DNA of 64,000 bases from contig DAHUXH010000004.1 of NCBI GenBank assembly GCA_027307235.1, positions 1 through 64,000 on the forward strand, in the 5' to 3' direction. Shown here piece after piece: positions 6,970-13,287 of the stretch; the stretch's first letter is position 1, and every line of letters starts with the position of its first letter. The translations under genes were made by a program, and so were the position numbers. The notes below the pieces were generated by a model that was not told where the DNA came from, ran no database searches, and worked only from the letters and a program-made list of their open reading frames with translations. This DNA is from Vulcanimicrobiota bacterium (GTDB lineage: Bacteria > Vulcanimicrobiota > Vulcanimicrobiia > Vulcanimicrobiales > Vulcanimicrobiaceae).

Positions 6970-7015
6970 TTGACAAGGCGCTGGTTCGCTTGTATTGTAC
7001 TAGGCACGTAGTACA
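6970..7015 (+). promoter_or_regulatory. Sigma-70 promoter with overlapping GntR operator
   Basis: TTGACA (6970-6975), a 17-bp spacer and TATTGT (6993-6998) form a near-consensus promoter. A perfect inverted repeat TGTACTA-N6-TAGTACA (6996-7015) covers the -10 end and the expected start site. It sits 23 bases before the first gene of the GntR/ABC operon, as expected for autoregulation by that GntR protein. GTAC-containing palindromes are typical operators of YtrA-subfamily regulators. Confidence 0.8.
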
Positions 7016-7038: not shown

Positions 7039-7437
7039 ATGCCAATAGAGCTTACCGTGGATCCGCGCAGCGGATATCCCATCTACCTGCAGATCGTCGA
7101 ACAGATCCAGCGGGCGGTTGCCGTCGGGCGGCTGACGCCCGGCGAACAGTTGCCGACGGTCAAGCAGCTTGCCTCCGATCTGCTGGTGAACCCGAGCACG
7201 ATCGCTCGGGCATTGCGCGAGCTGGAGCATCTTGGGATCGTCGATTCGCTCGCGGGGCGCGGGAGCTGGGTGCGCCGCGACGGCGCGACCGCCGCAGCTT
7301 CCCGCGTAGCGGGCGATGCGGTCGCGTCGGCACTCGCCGCAGCCGTGCGGGAAGCGCGCGCGCTCGGCGTCGATCGCACGCAGTTGCGCGACCTGTTCAC
7401 CTCTGCTGTCGAGACGTGGTATCGCGATGACGCCTAA
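7039..7437 (+). CDS. YtrA-subfamily GntR transcriptional regulator
   Basis: A 132-residue protein with a GntR winged helix over residues 10-75 (YLQIVEQIQRAVAVGRLTPG, then LPTVKQLASDLLVNPSTIARAL) and only a short C-terminal dimerisation segment. This small form is the YtrA subfamily, which controls the ABC transporter encoded next to it. It is the first gene of an operon. The ABC ATPase gene starts inside its last codons, and a palindrome over the promoter is the likely target. The inducing signal cannot be read from sequence; in known cases it is often cell-envelope stress. Confidence 0.9.
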   Translation: MPIELTVDPRSGYPIYLQIVEQIQRAVAVGRLTPGEQLPTVKQLASDLLVNPSTIARALRELEHLGIVDSLAGRGSWVRRDGATAAASRVAGDAVASALAAAVREARALGVDRTQLRDLFTSAVETWYRDDA

Positions 7438-8245
7438 GCTTGCCATCGAGCATCTTCGCGTGCACTACCGCGACGTGCGGGCTGTGAATGATGTGTCCTT
7501 CAGCGTTCGGCCGGGCTGCATCTTCGGATTGATCGGGCGCAACGGAGCGGGCAAGACGACGACGTTTGGTTGCGCGCTCGGCTTGTTGCGGCCGACGTCG
7601 GGAACGGTGCTGTTCGATGGGAGCCCGCTCTCGCCGCGCACCCTCGCGGATGTGGCCTACCTGCCCGAAACGCCGGCACTGTTCGGATGGATGACGCCGA
7701 GTCAACACGTCGAGTTTTGGCGTCGTCTCTATCCGAACTTTTCGATCACGCGCGCCCACGAACTCGCGGAGATCTTCGAAGTGCCGCTGCAACGGCGCGT
7801 CGGCCGTCTCTCGAAAGGACAGCAAACCGCGGTCGGCTTGATGCTGGCATTCGCGCAGGGCGCTCAGCTGCTGTTTCTCGACGAGCCGGCATCGGGGCTC
7901 GATCCCGTCTTACAGCATCGCTTGCTCAATCTCATCGTGGACGCCGGATCGGAGGGCGTAACCGTATTTTCGTCGCATCAGATTGGGCACATCGAGCGTG
8001 CTGTCGAGGAACTTGCGATTCTGGATCGCGGTCGAGTGCTGTTGCAAGGCAACCTCGACGAACTCCGCGAGCGCAAGAAGGTCGTCGAAGCGATCGTCAA
8101 CGGATCGCTGGTGCGCCGTGCCGTCGACGGAGATGCCGACGCGGTCGCACTCGAGCTGTCGCGCGGCGGCGCGCATTCGGTGCGCATTCTCGACCAAACG
8201 CTGGAACAGCTGTTCTTTGCGACCATCGGTGGAGACCCCGTCTAG
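7427..8245 (+). CDS. ABC transporter ATP-binding protein (YtrB-like)
   Basis: A 272-residue ATPase of the drug/antibiotic-export type. Walker A is GRNGAGKTT, the signature LSKGQQ, Walker B LLFLDEPASGLDP, and the switch His lies in FSSHQIG. It powers the six-helix permease encoded directly downstream with no gap. The ATG at 7427 overlaps the end of the GntR gene and follows it in the same transcript. The C-terminal 60 residues are a small variable domain, as in other export ATPases. Confidence 0.93.
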   Translation: MTPKLAIEHLRVHYRDVRAVNDVSFSVRPGCIFGLIGRNGAGKTTTFGCALGLLRPTSGTVLFDGSPLSPRTLADVAYLPETPALFGWMTPSQHVEFWRRLYPNFSITRAHELAEIFEVPLQRRVGRLSKGQQTAVGLMLAFAQGAQLLFLDEPASGLDPVLQHRLLNLIVDAGSEGVTVFSSHQIGHIERAVEELAILDRGRVLLQGNLDELRERKKVVEAIVNGSLVRRAVDGDADAVALELSRGGAHSVRILDQTLEQLFFATIGGDPV

Positions 8246-8995
8246 ATGTATTACAAGGAACTGCTGGTCGTTCGGCGCGCGCTTGTCATCTACGCCATCG
8301 TGTTGGCGGTACTCAGCGTAGTGACCATCGTGTCGTGGGCGGGCGACAAAACAGCGTTTTCCAGCGCAAGCTGGACATTGGAAGCGATGGCCGGCACATG
8401 TGGCTGGGTCGTGTGTGGCTTCGCGCTCGTCCTGGGCACGGGTTTGGGAAACGAGCGGCGCGAGGCCGGACGCGCTGCGTTCATTCGACCGATGCCCCGC
8501 GAACGGTATGCGTGCGCCGTCATCGGCGTCGACGTGGCTGCTCTGATCGCCGCCTATTTTTTCACGGTGTTGGTGAATGCTCTGGCGTTCATCGTAGCGA
8601 CTCACCACGGGGTCACGATGACGCTTTCCCTCTTTAACGTGGTGATCATGCCGTTGAGCGGTGTGCTCGCATTCTACGGCGTCACGCTTGCGCTCGGCGT
8701 GCTCTTCACGCGCTCGACGCTGGTCGCGATCCTGGTGCTCCCGGTGTCCTTGCTGCTGTGGGGCGCTGTGAGCACGGACTGGTCGGCGGAGCCGGCCTTC
8801 ATACCGCTCAACGTCATCAATCCCGTTGCCTATTTTGCACCCGCGGTGTCGATGATGCAGGATCCGCACTTTCGGGGAATCGGCCCGTTCTGGCTGCTCT
8901 CGTCGGCCATGGATACCCTCATTCTGTATGGATTCTTCGCGGCTGGCGTGATCGTCGCCATCGTCGCGTGGAGCCGCGCTGAAATTCGCACGTAG
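8246..8995 (+). CDS. ABC transporter permease, six membrane helices
   Basis: A 249-residue integral membrane protein. Hydrophobic segments lie near residues 8-30, 50-70, 88-112, 122-145, 150-170 and 215-243. It resembles the permeases that pair with YtrB/CcmA-type ATPases, and its start codon directly follows the ATPase stop. No substrate-specific feature is visible. After 18 bases with a strong GGAGG site, the first of three secreted paralogs follows, so transporter and secreted proteins share one transcript. Confidence 0.85.
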   Translation: MYYKELLVVRRALVIYAIVLAVLSVVTIVSWAGDKTAFSSASWTLEAMAGTCGWVVCGFALVLGTGLGNERREAGRAAFIRPMPRERYACAVIGVDVAALIAAYFFTVLVNALAFIVATHHGVTMTLSLFNVVIMPLSGVLAFYGVTLALGVLFTRSTLVAILVLPVSLLLWGAVSTDWSAEPAFIPLNVINPVAYFAPAVSMMQDPHFRGIGPFWLLSSAMDTLILYGFFAAGVIVAIVAWSRAEIRT

Positions 8996-9013
8996 AGACG
9001 TAGGAGGAAGAAC

Positions 9014-9922
9014 GTGTTTCGTACGACGGTACGGATGCTGCGGCGCGCAGCATCCCTGGCATCGGTTTGCCTGAGCGCTGCGCTTGCGCTCACATGGTCT
9101 GCGCACGCAGCACAACCGCCCTCGGCAACGGCGTATTACGAGCGGGCTCTCGAGGTGATGAAGGCGTTGCCCGAGCCGACGTTTATGACCTACACCGAGA
9201 ATGTGTCCGCCACCGGCATCGGCGTCGGCATGTATCCGTCGCGGGTCGACGGCTCGGCGTATTTGTATATCGGCTGGGGGCCGGCGAATAAACCGGCAAT
9301 CTCCTGGAAGACGAACTATCGCGCAGTCAACATCGAAGCGATTACGCTGCCGGACGGCAGGCATATGCTCGGGCATTCGCCCGTCTACGATCCAAGCTGG
9401 AACGGCGCATATGATTGGCTGCGGTACGGATTGCATGGTCCGGTGCCGAGTTCACCGACACCGAGCCCGCACGCCGCGGGAGCAAGCGTAGCCACGGCGG
9501 CGGTGCCGACGATCGCGCTCGTCGAAGCGCTGGGTTCGGCGTCGTATCGCATCTACGAAGGCGGGAGCGCGACCTGTTCCAACGGCGATCCGGGACATCG
9601 ATTGAATCTCGCCGCGATCGGTAACGCCGATGGACATCCGCTCAACTACGTCGTCATCGACACGCGCAACGTGCGATTTTGCACGATGGGATTCCATCTT
9701 CCGCAAGAATCCGGCCTGGTCGCACTCACCGGTTCATTCGAATTGCATTTCGGAACGGTCGGTTCATATTGGATCATAACCGATGGCACCGGCGATCTTC
9801 TGATGCGCTCCTTCGGCGTCAGCGTCCACCATGCGCACCTGGCATTTTCTTTTCACGACGTCGCGTATCCGTCGATGCTCTCCGATCCGCTCTTCCCACC
9901 AGATTCAAAGGAGCAGTCATGA
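9014..9922 (+). CDS. Secreted protein, paralog 1 of 3 in tandem
   Basis: GTG start 7 bases after GGAGGAAGAAC-type spacing (AGGAGG upstream). The 302-residue product has an N-terminal signal peptide ending near SAHAA. The mature part begins with PSATAYYERAL..MKALP, shared by the next two genes. Other shared blocks are DPSWNGAYDWLRYG, a Pro/Ser linker (SSPTPSPH), a CSNGDPGHRL..FCTM segment with two Cys that may form a disulfide, and the ending TDGTGDLLMRSFG..HLAFSFHDV..P. I recognise no named family. It is the most divergent of the three. Its stop overlaps the start of the next copy. Confidence 0.8.
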   Translation: MFRTTVRMLRRAASLASVCLSAALALTWSAHAAQPPSATAYYERALEVMKALPEPTFMTYTENVSATGIGVGMYPSRVDGSAYLYIGWGPANKPAISWKTNYRAVNIEAITLPDGRHMLGHSPVYDPSWNGAYDWLRYGLHGPVPSSPTPSPHAAGASVATAAVPTIALVEALGSASYRIYEGGSATCSNGDPGHRLNLAAIGNADGHPLNYVVIDTRNVRFCTMGFHLPQESGLVALTGSFELHFGTVGSYWIITDGTGDLLMRSFGVSVHHAHLAFSFHDVAYPSMLSDPLFPPDSKEQS

Positions 9923-10809
9923 TGAAACAGTTCGCGGCACCTATCGCGATCGCGCTCGTCGCCGCGCTTGCGGTACCGGCGGGCGCGCAGAACGCGCCGT
10001 CGGCGACGGCATACTATGAAGCAGCATTGAGCGCGATGAAATCGCTGCCGCAACCTGCCTACGTCACCTTCACCGCGACGGTCAACGCCGAAGGGATGGG
10101 TTTTGCGGTCATTCCCGAGCATCACGTTGCCGATTTGGCAATCGGTTGGGGCGACGCTCTGAAACCGCAAACATCGTGGCAATCCGATCACCGCACGCAA
10201 ACCGACACGACAACGATCCTCACGGAGAAGGGAGAGCGTTTGCTTGGGGAGTCGCCGCTCTGGGACCCGACCTGGAACGGCGCCTACGATTGGTTGCGGT
10301 ACGGCGTCTTCGGCTCGCAGCAGCCGCAATTCAATGCAAACGTGAAGGCCGATGCGACGCCTGCACCGTCTGCGACACCGGTGCAGGGTGGTGCGATCAA
10401 GACGATAGCGGTGGTGAGTGCGATGGGAGCGCAGTACTACCGCATCACCGACGGCGGATCGGCGAGCTGTCCGAGCGGAGCGCCCGGACATGCGCTGCAT
10501 TTGAGTGCCGTTCGCGATCCAAGTGCGCACCCGCTCAGCGACGTCGTCGTCGAGGCGGGATCCTTGCGATTCTGCATGATGCGATTCAGCATCGCCGACA
10601 GCGGCGTGGTCGGACTGACCGGCTTCTCGGAACTGCACTTCAACGACGCCGGAGGATATTGGATGACGACCGACGCGACGACGACGCTCTTGATCCGCGC
10701 GTTCGGCATCGGCGTGAAAAAAGCCGTGCTGAGATTCAGCTATCGCAGCTTTGCGTTTCCCGCATCGCTCCCCGATTCACTCTTCGACTTCCCGGAGGTG
10801 ACACGATGA
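9919..10809 (+). CDS. Secreted protein, paralog 2 of 3 in tandem
   Basis: A 296-residue product starting MMKQ, with a clean signal peptide cut after AGAQ. The mature N-terminus is NAPSATAYYEAALSAMKSLP. It shares the DPTWNGAYDWLRYG block, a Pro/Ala linker, the Cys pair (ASCPSGAPGHAL and RFCMMRF), and the GLTG.SELHFNDAGGYWMTTD block with its neighbours. By eye it is far closer to copy 3 than to copy 1. The start ATG overlaps the stop of copy 1 and its TGA overlaps the start of copy 3, so all are translated as one chain. Function unknown. Confidence 0.8.
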   Translation: MMKQFAAPIAIALVAALAVPAGAQNAPSATAYYEAALSAMKSLPQPAYVTFTATVNAEGMGFAVIPEHHVADLAIGWGDALKPQTSWQSDHRTQTDTTTILTEKGERLLGESPLWDPTWNGAYDWLRYGVFGSQQPQFNANVKADATPAPSATPVQGGAIKTIAVVSAMGAQYYRITDGGSASCPSGAPGHALHLSAVRDPSAHPLSDVVVEAGSLRFCMMRFSIADSGVVGLTGFSELHFNDAGGYWMTTDATTTLLIRAFGIGVKKAVLRFSYRSFAFPASLPDSLFDFPEVTR

Positions 10810-11678
10810 AAATCGCATGCGGGGCCCTAGCGCTCGCCGGTGTCTTCGTCACGCCGGCGTTCGCGCAGAACGCACCCTCGGCAACGGCGTACTACGAAGC
10901 GGCGCTGAACACGACGAAATCATTGCCGCAACCGGCGTATATCGCCTTCACCACGACGGTCGTGGCCGAGGGGTTGACCTTTCACGTCACGCCATATCAT
11001 ACGCATGAGGCGTGGCTTGGGCTCGGGCTCGGAGACGGCAGCGCGCCCCACTCCTGGCAGTCGGATCATCGCGCGAGCACCGATACGACGGTCATCCTCA
11101 CCGGTGATGGTGAGCGTCTGCGCGCGCTTTCACCGCTCTACGACCCCACTTGGGATGGTGCGAACGACTGGATGCGCTACGGTGTCTTTAGCGCCGCGCA
11201 ACCTCCCTACGACCCGCAGCCGCACACGCAAGGATCACCGGTGCCGCAAGTGATGCCGAGCGACTCGACGATCAAGACCATCGCCGTGGTCAGCGTGATG
11301 GGAGCAAAGTTCTATCGCATCGACGATGGCGGGCGGGCAGCTTGCCCGAACGGTGCGCCCGGACATGCGTTGCGTCTGAGCGCAATTCGCGATCCGGATC
11401 TCCACCCGTTGACCGGCGTCATCGTCGATGTCGCATCGTCGCGATTCTGCTCCATGCAGTTTCGCATCGGGAACGGAAGCGCGCTCGGTCTGACCGGTTC
11501 CTCCGAGCTGCACTTCAACGACGTTGGCGGCTACTGGATGACCACCGACGGCACGACTACCTTCTTGGTGCGCGTGCTCGGCATCGGCGTCAAGAAAGCC
11601 GTGCTGCACTTCAGCTACCACGATGTCACCTTTCCGCCGGCGCTGCCCGATTCGCTCTTCGACTTTTCAAGTCAATAA
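10806..11678 (+). CDS. Secreted protein, paralog 3 of 3 in tandem
   Basis: A 290-residue product with a signal peptide ending at TPAFAQ and mature start NAPSATAYYEAAL. It repeats all conserved blocks of copies 1 and 2, including the Cys pair and the ELHFNDVGGYWMTTDGTTT segment, with a Pro/Gln-rich linker in the middle. It is the last gene of the GntR/ABC operon. The next gene converges from the minus strand 58 bases away. Copies 2 and 3 look like a recent duplication. Function unknown. Confidence 0.8.
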   Translation: MKIACGALALAGVFVTPAFAQNAPSATAYYEAALNTTKSLPQPAYIAFTTTVVAEGLTFHVTPYHTHEAWLGLGLGDGSAPHSWQSDHRASTDTTVILTGDGERLRALSPLYDPTWDGANDWMRYGVFSAAQPPYDPQPHTQGSPVPQVMPSDSTIKTIAVVSVMGAKFYRIDDGGRAACPNGAPGHALRLSAIRDPDLHPLTGVIVDVASSRFCSMQFRIGNGSALGLTGSSELHFNDVGGYWMTTDGTTTFLVRVLGIGVKKAVLHFSYHDVTFPPALPDSLFDFSSQ

Positions 11679-11736: not shown

Positions 11737-13167
11737 CTAGGAAGACGAGCTATCTGAATCGCTGAGTTCCGTCCAGACAATCGGCGCACCGTCGGCATGA
11801 ACGCTCGCGATGGGGGCGTTGCTCGAATAGATGGACACGCTGCCGCCCAGCACGTCGAAGTCCGGTCCCGGGAGGGGCCTCAGTGCAGCGCCGCGGGTCT
11901 CGTACGGACGTCCGACCTCGTCCTGCGTGTGCGCATAGAGGTTGAACAGGCCGCTTACGTACGGACTCCCATCAGGCGCGATGAGATAGCGTCCGAATTC
12001 ACGTAAGGCTTCGGAAAGCGCAATGGGGAGTGCATCTTGCATCGCTTTTATGCCGCCGCTATCTGTGTTCGTTACGGCGGTCAGGTAGTTGTCACCAAAA
12101 CGATCGTAGAGAAAGCGTTGCAGGAGATAGGCTCCGCCGTAGCAGGCCGTGCCGAATGGGTGGGCTTCGCGGCCGTTGTTGAGACTGAATGAAAGGAGGC
12201 TCACGGCGTTTGGGTCGCTCAGGTACACGCGCGCAGCATCCCCCGCTCCGAAAAGATCGTACGGCCGGCCAAAGAGGGCGGTCACGGCGAAATCTTGCGA
12301 TAGCTCCGACAACCCCTCATTGAGCAACGGCATCAGTTGTTCGGACCTGAATCCTCGAATCGTGCCACGCACGAAGCGCTGCAGATGCTGCAATTCCGGC
12401 GCATACACCAAGGTGCCATCTTGGAGTTCGGCTGGACGACGTCGCTCGAACGGCCACACGACCAGTCCGGGCATCTCGTTGGAGTGGATGGTCCTCGCAT
12501 AACAGTTGAGATTTGCCTGATAGCGATACGAGTTCACCAGCGCGCCGCCGTTCATGGCCTCCGAGCTGCCGACGATGAGAAAACTCAGTAACTCGCCGTT
12601 GGAGGGGACGAATGCGGGAACTTGGCCGACGATGCGACGCGCGAAGTCGCAGGCGTTGATCAGACCGTGTTTCGACACGTCGCCGCCGGTGTAACTCAGT
12701 GGGCCGAAGTGGCCGCGTTGCGACAGATATGCGTTCTCGACATCGCGCGGAAGCGCGGCCTCGAGGGCGGGATCGATCGTGCCGAGGTTGTCGTCAATCC
12801 AAATATCCGCGTGGTCGGTGGTGAAACGCAGCGTCGCAAACACCTGGCCCCACGTGACGTCCTTGTTTCGCCCGGTTGGGTCGAAGCGTTCAACCCAAAA
12901 CGTCCTGCGGTCGCCGACATGTCCGTGCCGCGGCGCAAATTCAGGCGCTGCATCCACGAGCGCTCTCTTCGGATCGGCGATCGGCGGGCTCGCCGAAGCC
13001 GCGTCATCCGTATGCGGCCCAAATGTCACATGAACGCGCTCTGCCCTTGGTGTAGAGGCGAGTGAAACGATCGCGAGACGATACGTTTGGGCGTCGGCGC
13101 GGCCCCCGCCGACGGCAAAGCAGTACGCAAACACCGCGAGAAGCAACGCGGCTGCACGCCTCTGCAC
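11737..13167 (-). CDS. Secreted hyicolysin (M30)-like protein, probably catalytically dead
   Basis: The 476-residue product begins at a GTG (13165-13167) that gives a proper signal peptide (QRRAAALLLAVFAYCFAVGG, then RADAQ). The frame stays open further upstream, but that part would run through the tRNA-Ser gene. Residues about 260-310 look like the zinc-protease region of M30/gluzincin enzymes: the downstream LLNEGLSELSQDF matches the family's third-ligand motif. The expected HExxH reads PELQH, so the first zinc-binding His is a Pro. Inference: a protease-like protein that has lost metal binding, or one with a rearranged site. It ends in a Ser/Asp-rich tail and faces the secreted-paralog operon. 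Confidence 0.72.
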   Translation of the reverse strand: MQRRAAALLLAVFAYCFAVGGGRADAQTYRLAIVSLASTPRAERVHVTFGPHTDDAASASPPIADPKRALVDAAPEFAPRHGHVGDRRTFWVERFDPTGRNKDVTWGQVFATLRFTTDHADIWIDDNLGTIDPALEAALPRDVENAYLSQRGHFGPLSYTGGDVSKHGLINACDFARRIVGQVPAFVPSNGELLSFLIVGSSEAMNGGALVNSYRYQANLNCYARTIHSNEMPGLVVWPFERRRPAELQDGTLVYAPELQHLQRFVRGTIRGFRSEQLMPLLNEGLSELSQDFAVTALFGRPYDLFGAGDAARVYLSDPNAVSLLSFSLNNGREAHPFGTACYGGAYLLQRFLYDRFGDNYLTAVTNTDSGGIKAMQDALPIALSEALREFGRYLIAPDGSPYVSGLFNLYAHTQDEVGRPYETRGAALRPLPGPDFDVLGGSVSIYSSNAPIASVHADGAPIVWTELSDSDSSSS

Positions 13168-13199
13168 ACGGGGACGCGTTTTGGAAACTAGTTTCGATT

Positions 13200-13286
13200 C
13201 GGAGAGGGGGAGATTCGAACTCCCGAGACCCGTGAAGGTCTGCTCGCTTTCCAAGCGAGTGCATTCGACCACTCTGCCACCTCTCC
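13200..13286 (-). tRNA. tRNA-Ser (GGA)
   Basis: Read on the minus strand, the 7-bp acceptor stem GGAGAGG/CCTCTCC, an anticodon stem CTCGC/GCGAG with loop TTGGAAA (anticodon GGA), a long variable arm and the T arm GGGAG-TTCGAAT-CTCCC are all present. The long variable arm and 87-base length fit a class II tRNA. The discriminator base is G and no CCA is encoded. It lies 1 base after a pair of overlapping hairpins and has no obvious promoter of its own. Confidence 0.96.
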
Positions 13287-13287
13287 A

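What the first reader, a model, noticed from the sequence alone, without database searches (positions are those of the whole stretch)
7039..11678. GntR/ABC stress module fused to three tandem secreted paralogs of unknown family
One promoter with a perfect operator drives a YtrA-type repressor, ATPase, permease, then three signal-peptide proteins sharing PSATAYYE, NGAYDWLRYG and a Cys pair. All three paralogs are joined by 4-base overlaps. YtrA operons usually encode transporter parts only. This looks like an undescribed envelope defence or export cassette in which the secreted proteins may be cargo or act with the transporter.
Basis: partly seen in the sequence, partly recalled or inferred. 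Interest (0 to 1): 0.72.

Follow-up and report, generated by a model that had tools for sequence, protein, structure and literature searches.

The report
Stress-type transporter operon with LolA-fold proteins
In an uncultured bacterium of the phylum Eremiobacterota, a common self-regulated membrane-transporter operon carries three extra genes for secreted proteins that are predicted to have the lipid-carrier (LolA) fold; the operon and the protein family are each widespread in the phylum, and only their joining in this way is rare.

Summary
In detail: six co-directional genes at 7039-11678 (YtrA-type GntR, ABC ATPase, 6-TM permease, three secreted paralogues S1-S3), two ATGA overlaps and a palindromic operator over the -10 box. 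The GntR-ATPase-permease trio is a standing operon of Eremiobacterota: GntR relatives are in 121 of 149 genomes, and the operator (GTACTA-N6-TAGTAC, at most 1 mismatch) precedes 45 of 61 read, against 0 of 1220 shuffles. In this genome the operator marks only the two copies of the trio. S1-S3 have no Pfam, NCBIfam or PDB sequence match, but two AlphaFold models both return LolA-superfamily structures on top (prob 1.00), and a same-genome protein links the family to Pfam LolA_like. Relatives occur in 65 of 149 genomes, mostly away from such operons; only 6 genomes have them beside one, from at least two origins. Two are fused to hydrolases. Best reading: an accessory YtrA-type exporter operon that captured and amplified periplasmic LolA-fold, probably lipid-binding, proteins. 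Joint function with the transporter is inferred, not shown.

The parts
6970..6998 (+). sigma-70-like promoter TTGACA-17-TATTGT
   Evidence: 10 of 12 matches; about one such site is expected by chance in the region, but position and operator overlap support it
6996..7015 (.). operator TGTACTA-N6-TAGTACA, overlapping the -10 box
   Evidence: 0-1 mismatches before 45 of 61 GntR relatives, 0 of 1220 shuffles; only two sites with up to 2 mismatches in the own genome, both before this type of operon
7039..7437 (+). YtrA-type GntR repressor, 132 aa
   Evidence: Pfam GntR 9.9e-15; nearest NCBIfam models Rv1152 and PmtR, below cut-off; PDB relatives 3by6, 4ham
7427..8245 (+). ABC ATPase, 272 aa, Walker A GRNGAGKT, signature LSKGQ, Walker B LLFLDE, H-loop
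   Evidence: Pfam ABC_tran 1.1e-23; motifs
8246..8995 (+). ABC-2-like permease, 249 aa, six hydrophobic segments, no large periplasmic domain
   Evidence: Pfam ABC2_membrane_4 E 0.0035, below cut-off; segments
9014..9922 (+). S1, secreted LolA-fold protein, 302 aa, signal peptide
   Evidence: AlphaFold on mature S1, pTM 0.71; top five Foldseek hits all LolA superfamily, E 4.4e-6 to 1.1e-3
9919..10809 (+). S2, secreted LolA-fold protein, 296 aa
   Evidence: AlphaFold pTM 0.67; Foldseek 3buu E 1.2e-5 and 9tp6 E 4.2e-5, prob 1.00
10806..11678 (+). S3, secreted paralogue of S2 (62% identity), 290 aa
   Evidence: alignment; tree, S2+S3 100/99

Best explanation
The locus is an accessory copy of the YtrA-type transporter operon that most members of this class carry. 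Shown by comparison: a GntR repressor of YtrA size, with a conserved operator over its own -10 box, heads an ATPase-permease pair. Inferred: the repressor blocks its own promoter until an envelope signal releases it; the ATPase and the six-TM permease then move a lipophilic or amphiphilic molecule out of the inner membrane. Specific to this genome: three secreted paralogues with a predicted LolA fold have been added at the end of the operon, so they should be made together with the exporter. Inferred: they act in the periplasm, each half-barrel binding a lipid-like ligand, and either take up or sequester what the exporter releases or protect the envelope under the same stress. Direct contact with the permease is possible but not indicated, since the permease lacks the periplasmic domain with which LolC docks LolA.
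For: GntR relatives in 121 of 149 genomes and ATPase plus permease behind them in nearly all of about 60 loci read. Operator conserved: 45 of 61 at 0-1 mismatch, 0 of 1220 shuffles; own genome has two sites, before the C4 and C20 copies, the C20 copy without secreted genes. LolA fold: two models with different lead sequences (S2, mature S1) give LolA-superfamily structures on top, and a protein of the same genome (C13:67010-67390) is hit by the family profile (7e-11) and, inside that stretch, by Pfam LolA_like (2e-4, below cut-off). Co-occurring cysteine pair. Ribosome sites and ATGA overlaps support translational coupling. Adjacency to such operons arose at least twice; against a rough expectation of 0.02-0.2 cases that is more than chance (P about 2e-4 to 0.02). 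LolA-fold proteins known to bind lipids or lipoproteins: LolA/LolB, MucB/RseB (PMC7400510, PMC8496864). The cultivated member of the phylum is diderm (PMC9758169).
Against: Most relatives of S1-S3 stand apart from any such operon, so they do not need the transporter. The closest relatives of this operon copy (G096:C14, G088:C8) lack them. Model confidence is moderate (mean pLDDT 67, only 11 sequences) and TM-scores of the Foldseek hits are low (0.33-0.36). No transcript evidence; the six-gene unit is known from a single genome.
Confidence: 0.55

Rival explanations
1. Hitch-hiking: S1-S3 only use the operon's promoter. The family has its own envelope role (as an accessory of hydrolases or in lipid handling) and the downstream slot of the transporter operon was a chance landing site that gives regulated expression; no shared substrate with the transporter.
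For: Relatives are mostly apart from such operons; domain fusions to a beta-lactamase-family enzyme (L060) and an alpha/beta hydrolase (L071), not to transporter parts; the sister operon copies lack them; a LolA-fold protein that works with an enzyme is known, GerS with CwlD (PMC8496864).
Against: At least two separate origins of the adjacency (window copy; G084 and genus g11) are more than the rough chance expectation; the three genes stay tightly coupled by overlaps after tandem duplication.
Confidence: 0.3
2. Lol-type relay: the exporter hands a lipid or lipoprotein directly to S1-S3, which carry it across the periplasm, as LolCDE-LolA do.
For: LolA-type fold, top hits of S1 include E. coli LolA in complex with LolC; no canonical LolA (PF03548) is found in the genome; an ABC transporter with a LolA-like protein in one cluster is proposed in Borrelia (BBJ26-28, PMC13078400).
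Against: The permease is a 249-aa ABC-2-like protein with no LolC/MacB-like periplasmic domain; the transporter is kept in most genomes without S genes; most S relatives lack the transporter.
Confidence: 0.1
3. One reading: a dedicated envelope-defence or export cassette in which the secreted proteins are cargo or obligate partners.
For: Operon layout; YtrA systems respond to cell-wall antibiotics in Bacillus subtilis (PMC12772383, PMC8060467).
Against: The partnership is not conserved; Sec signal peptides make ABC export needless; no defence-family match to S1-S3 or the permease.
Confidence: 0.05

Closest known systems
YtrA operon of Bacillus subtilis (ytrGABCDEF)
   Same: small GntR repressor, inverted-repeat operator, ABC transporter parts downstream, very small regulon of two operons (PMC8060467, PMC12772383)
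   Different: B. subtilis site is AGTGTA-13-TACACT, here GTACTA-N6-TAGTAC; extra genes there are a second ATPase, the FtsX-like YtrF and the small YtrG, here LolA-fold secreted proteins
LolA superfamily (LolA, LolB, MucB/RseB, NE2245, LolA3)
   Same: predicted N-terminal helix plus antiparallel half-barrel; secreted; top structure hits
   Different: no sequence match to PF03548; weak link to PF17131 only through a paralogue; conserved cysteine pair; extra low-confidence linker (residues 132-171 of S2)
Borrelia BBJ23-29 cluster (PMC13078400)
   Same: ABC ATPase, permease and a LolA-like protein in one cluster
   Different: permease there is type VII (MacB/LolE-like) with Omp85 and TPR partners; here ABC-2-like, with a GntR repressor and three LolA-fold paralogues
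GerS-CwlD (Clostridioides difficile, PMC8496864)
   Same: LolA-fold protein working with a cell-wall enzyme, comparable to the hydrolase fusions of this family
   Different: lipoprotein, separate genes, no transporter

Membership tests
YtrA subfamily of GntR regulators | GntR winged helix at the N terminus with a very short C-terminal part (about 120-130 aa in all) | tested here: met
   132 aa, GntR residues 16-77; best PDB relatives of 125-134 aa
YtrA subfamily of GntR regulators | own operon with ABC transporter genes and a palindromic operator | tested here: met
YtrA subfamily of GntR regulators | response to cell-wall-active antibiotics (as in B. subtilis) | not testable with these tools
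   needs expression data
LolA superfamily (fold) | N-terminal helix and open antiparallel half-barrel | tested here: met
   helix then two blocks of strands in S2, same order in S1; Foldseek matches under E 0.001 all LolA superfamily; moderate model confidence, low TM-scores
LolA superfamily (function) | binds lipid or lipoprotein acyl chains in the half-barrel | not testable with these tools
   needs purified protein
LolA proper (PF03548) | sequence match to the family model | tested here: not met
   no match for S1-S3 nor anywhere in the genome
LolA_like (PF17131) | sequence match above cut-off | tested here: not met
   none for S1-S3; paralogue on C13 at E 2e-4, below cut-off
LolCDE/MacB-type (type VII) transporter | permease with large periplasmic domain | tested here: not met
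   249 aa, six hydrophobic segments, short loops
Known anti-phage defence systems | specific PADLOC model match | tested here: not met
   only generic ATPase and winged-helix matches

The most novel reading that the evidence does not exclude
A YtrA-controlled exporter coupled with three periplasmic LolA-fold carriers that bind the exported lipid-like molecule: a stress-inducible lipid extraction and sequestration relay that uses an ABC-2-like permease in place of a LolCDE-type one.
Probability: 0.2. Interest if true: 0.65.

Novelty: new variant of a known kind. Interest (0 to 1): 0.36.

Why it matters
It gives a fold and a phylum-wide distribution to a secreted family of Eremiobacterota that has no family model, and a well supported operator for the phylum's YtrA-type regulon. 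If the secreted proteins work with the exporter, it would be a lipid relay built on a kind of ABC transporter not known to use LolA-fold carriers.

Tried and rejected
Pfam, NCBIfam and PDB sequence searches for S1-S3 and for a 43-member alignment: nothing. Defence reading: rejected on PADLOC. Operator regulon outside this operon type: only two sites in the genome, both before the trio; the reversed control pattern also gave two matches at up to 2 mismatches, so the evidence is position and low mismatch, not count. Phage or plasmid origin: no match to S2 in phage or plasmid records, no relative of the GntR in viral contigs. Common neighbour of the solitary relatives: only shared synteny within genera, no functional partner repeated across genera. 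Terminator after S3: none found on the + strand by consensus scan.

Full report
What is there. GntR 7039-7437 and the ATPase 7427-8245 overlap by 11 bases, permease 8246-8995 follows without gap, S1 starts with GTG at 9014 behind AGGAGGA, and S1/S2 and S2/S3 overlap by ATGA. The promoter-like TTGACA-17-TATTGT (6970-6998) is overlapped by TGTACTA-N6-TAGTACA (6996-7015). The window lies in a 2.41-Mb genome, 96.6% complete, of the phylum Eremiobacterota, judged from the title of a related contig.

The regulator and transporter are ordinary for the phylum. Relatives of the GntR protein occur in 121 of 149 genomes of the phylum. In the roughly 60 loci read, an ATPase and one or more permeases follow in nearly all, and in most the same-strand run then ends. 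GTACTA-N6-TAGTAC is found with at most one mismatch before 45 of 61 of these genes and in 0 of 1220 shuffled upstream regions. In the window's own genome the only two sites with up to two mismatches are those before this operon and before a second copy of the trio at C20:72301; that second copy has no secreted genes. In a tree of GntR plus ATPase the window copy groups with two other copies (G096:C14, G088:C8; support 100/99), apart from the large clade that holds the C20 copy, so it looks like an accessory copy (the branch is long, so its exact place is unsure).

The secreted proteins. S1-S3 have Sec-type signal peptides without a lipobox and exactly two cysteines in the mature part. In 43 family members these cysteines are both present (38) or both absent (5), which points to a disulfide (inference). 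No family model or PDB sequence matches. AlphaFold models of S2 (mean pLDDT 67, pTM 0.67) and of mature S1 (67, 0.71) both show an N-terminal helix, a first block of strands, a helix, a low-confidence linker, and a second block of strands. Foldseek gives LolA-superfamily structures as the only matches under E 0.001 for both: 3buu and 9tp6 for S2, 3bk5, 3buu and 9tp6 for S1, followed by E. coli LolA bound to LolC. TM-scores are low (0.33-0.36), so the statement is about fold class. The two models share most of their alignment and are not fully independent. A bridge by sequence exists: a protein at C13:67010-67390 is hit by the family profile (7e-11) and, inside the same stretch, by Pfam LolA_like.

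Distribution. The family is found in 65 of 149 genomes of the phylum, all in the same class, and not in phage or plasmid records. Of about 60 family loci read, only the window, G084 and G067 had the GntR/ATPase pair alongside; with the GntR-centred loci the list grows to six genomes (window, G084, and G061, G065, G066, G067 of one genus). Some further members sit on short contigs, so a few cases may be missed. The window is the only case with three copies. The S proteins of G084 and of that genus are not sisters of each other or of S1-S3, and the genus form lacks the cysteines, so the link arose at least twice. A rough calculation gives 0.02-0.2 expected cases, so a functional attraction is likely but not proven. 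Two relatives are fused to enzymes, a beta-lactamase-family protein and an alpha/beta hydrolase.

How it likely works. Shown by comparison: autoregulation layout, operator, transporter type, secretion signals, fold class. Inferred: envelope signal, derepression, export of an amphiphilic compound, binding of lipid-like ligands by S1-S3 in the periplasm. Precedents: the B. subtilis ytr operon, induced by lipid-II-binding antibiotics (PMC12772383, PMC8060467); lipid effects on MucB (PMC7400510); an ABC plus LolA-like cluster in Borrelia (PMC13078400); LolA-fold GerS activating an amidase (PMC8496864). The permease has no LolC-like periplasmic domain, which argues against a literal Lol relay.

Verdict. 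A real and neat gene arrangement: a known kind of operon with an unusual, lineage-specific addition. The secreted family is unnamed but its fold class is known. The library holds no paper that treats YtrA together with LolA. Interest moderate to low.

Noticed in passing
G000:C20:72301-72687 (locus L096): Second copy of the GntR-ATPase-permease trio in the same genome, with operator at C20:72866-72885 and no secreted genes behind it.
   Followed up: yes
L060:6204-8132 and L071:6745-8577: Family members fused to a beta-lactamase-family domain (PF00144, 2.6e-68) and to an alpha/beta hydrolase: the LolA-fold domain may serve envelope hydrolases.
   Followed up: partly
upstream of GntR genes in L096-L155: The operator lies about 155-200 bases before the called start codon in most genomes but 32-68 bases before it in the window, G096:C14, G088:C8 and genus g11.
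   Followed up: no
window 13199-13287: tRNA-Ser (GGA) on the - strand overlaps the start of the 511-aa ORF 11737-13272, so the true start of that protein must lie further in; the protein has no Pfam match.
   Followed up: partly
genome G000: No PF03548 LolA match in a genome 96.6% complete from a diderm phylum; only weak LolA_like matches and one MucB/RseB-type protein (C10:38760).
   Followed up: partly
L106, L107, L111, L129, L152: In several genomes the YtrA-type operon has two or three tandem permease genes in place of one.
   Followed up: no
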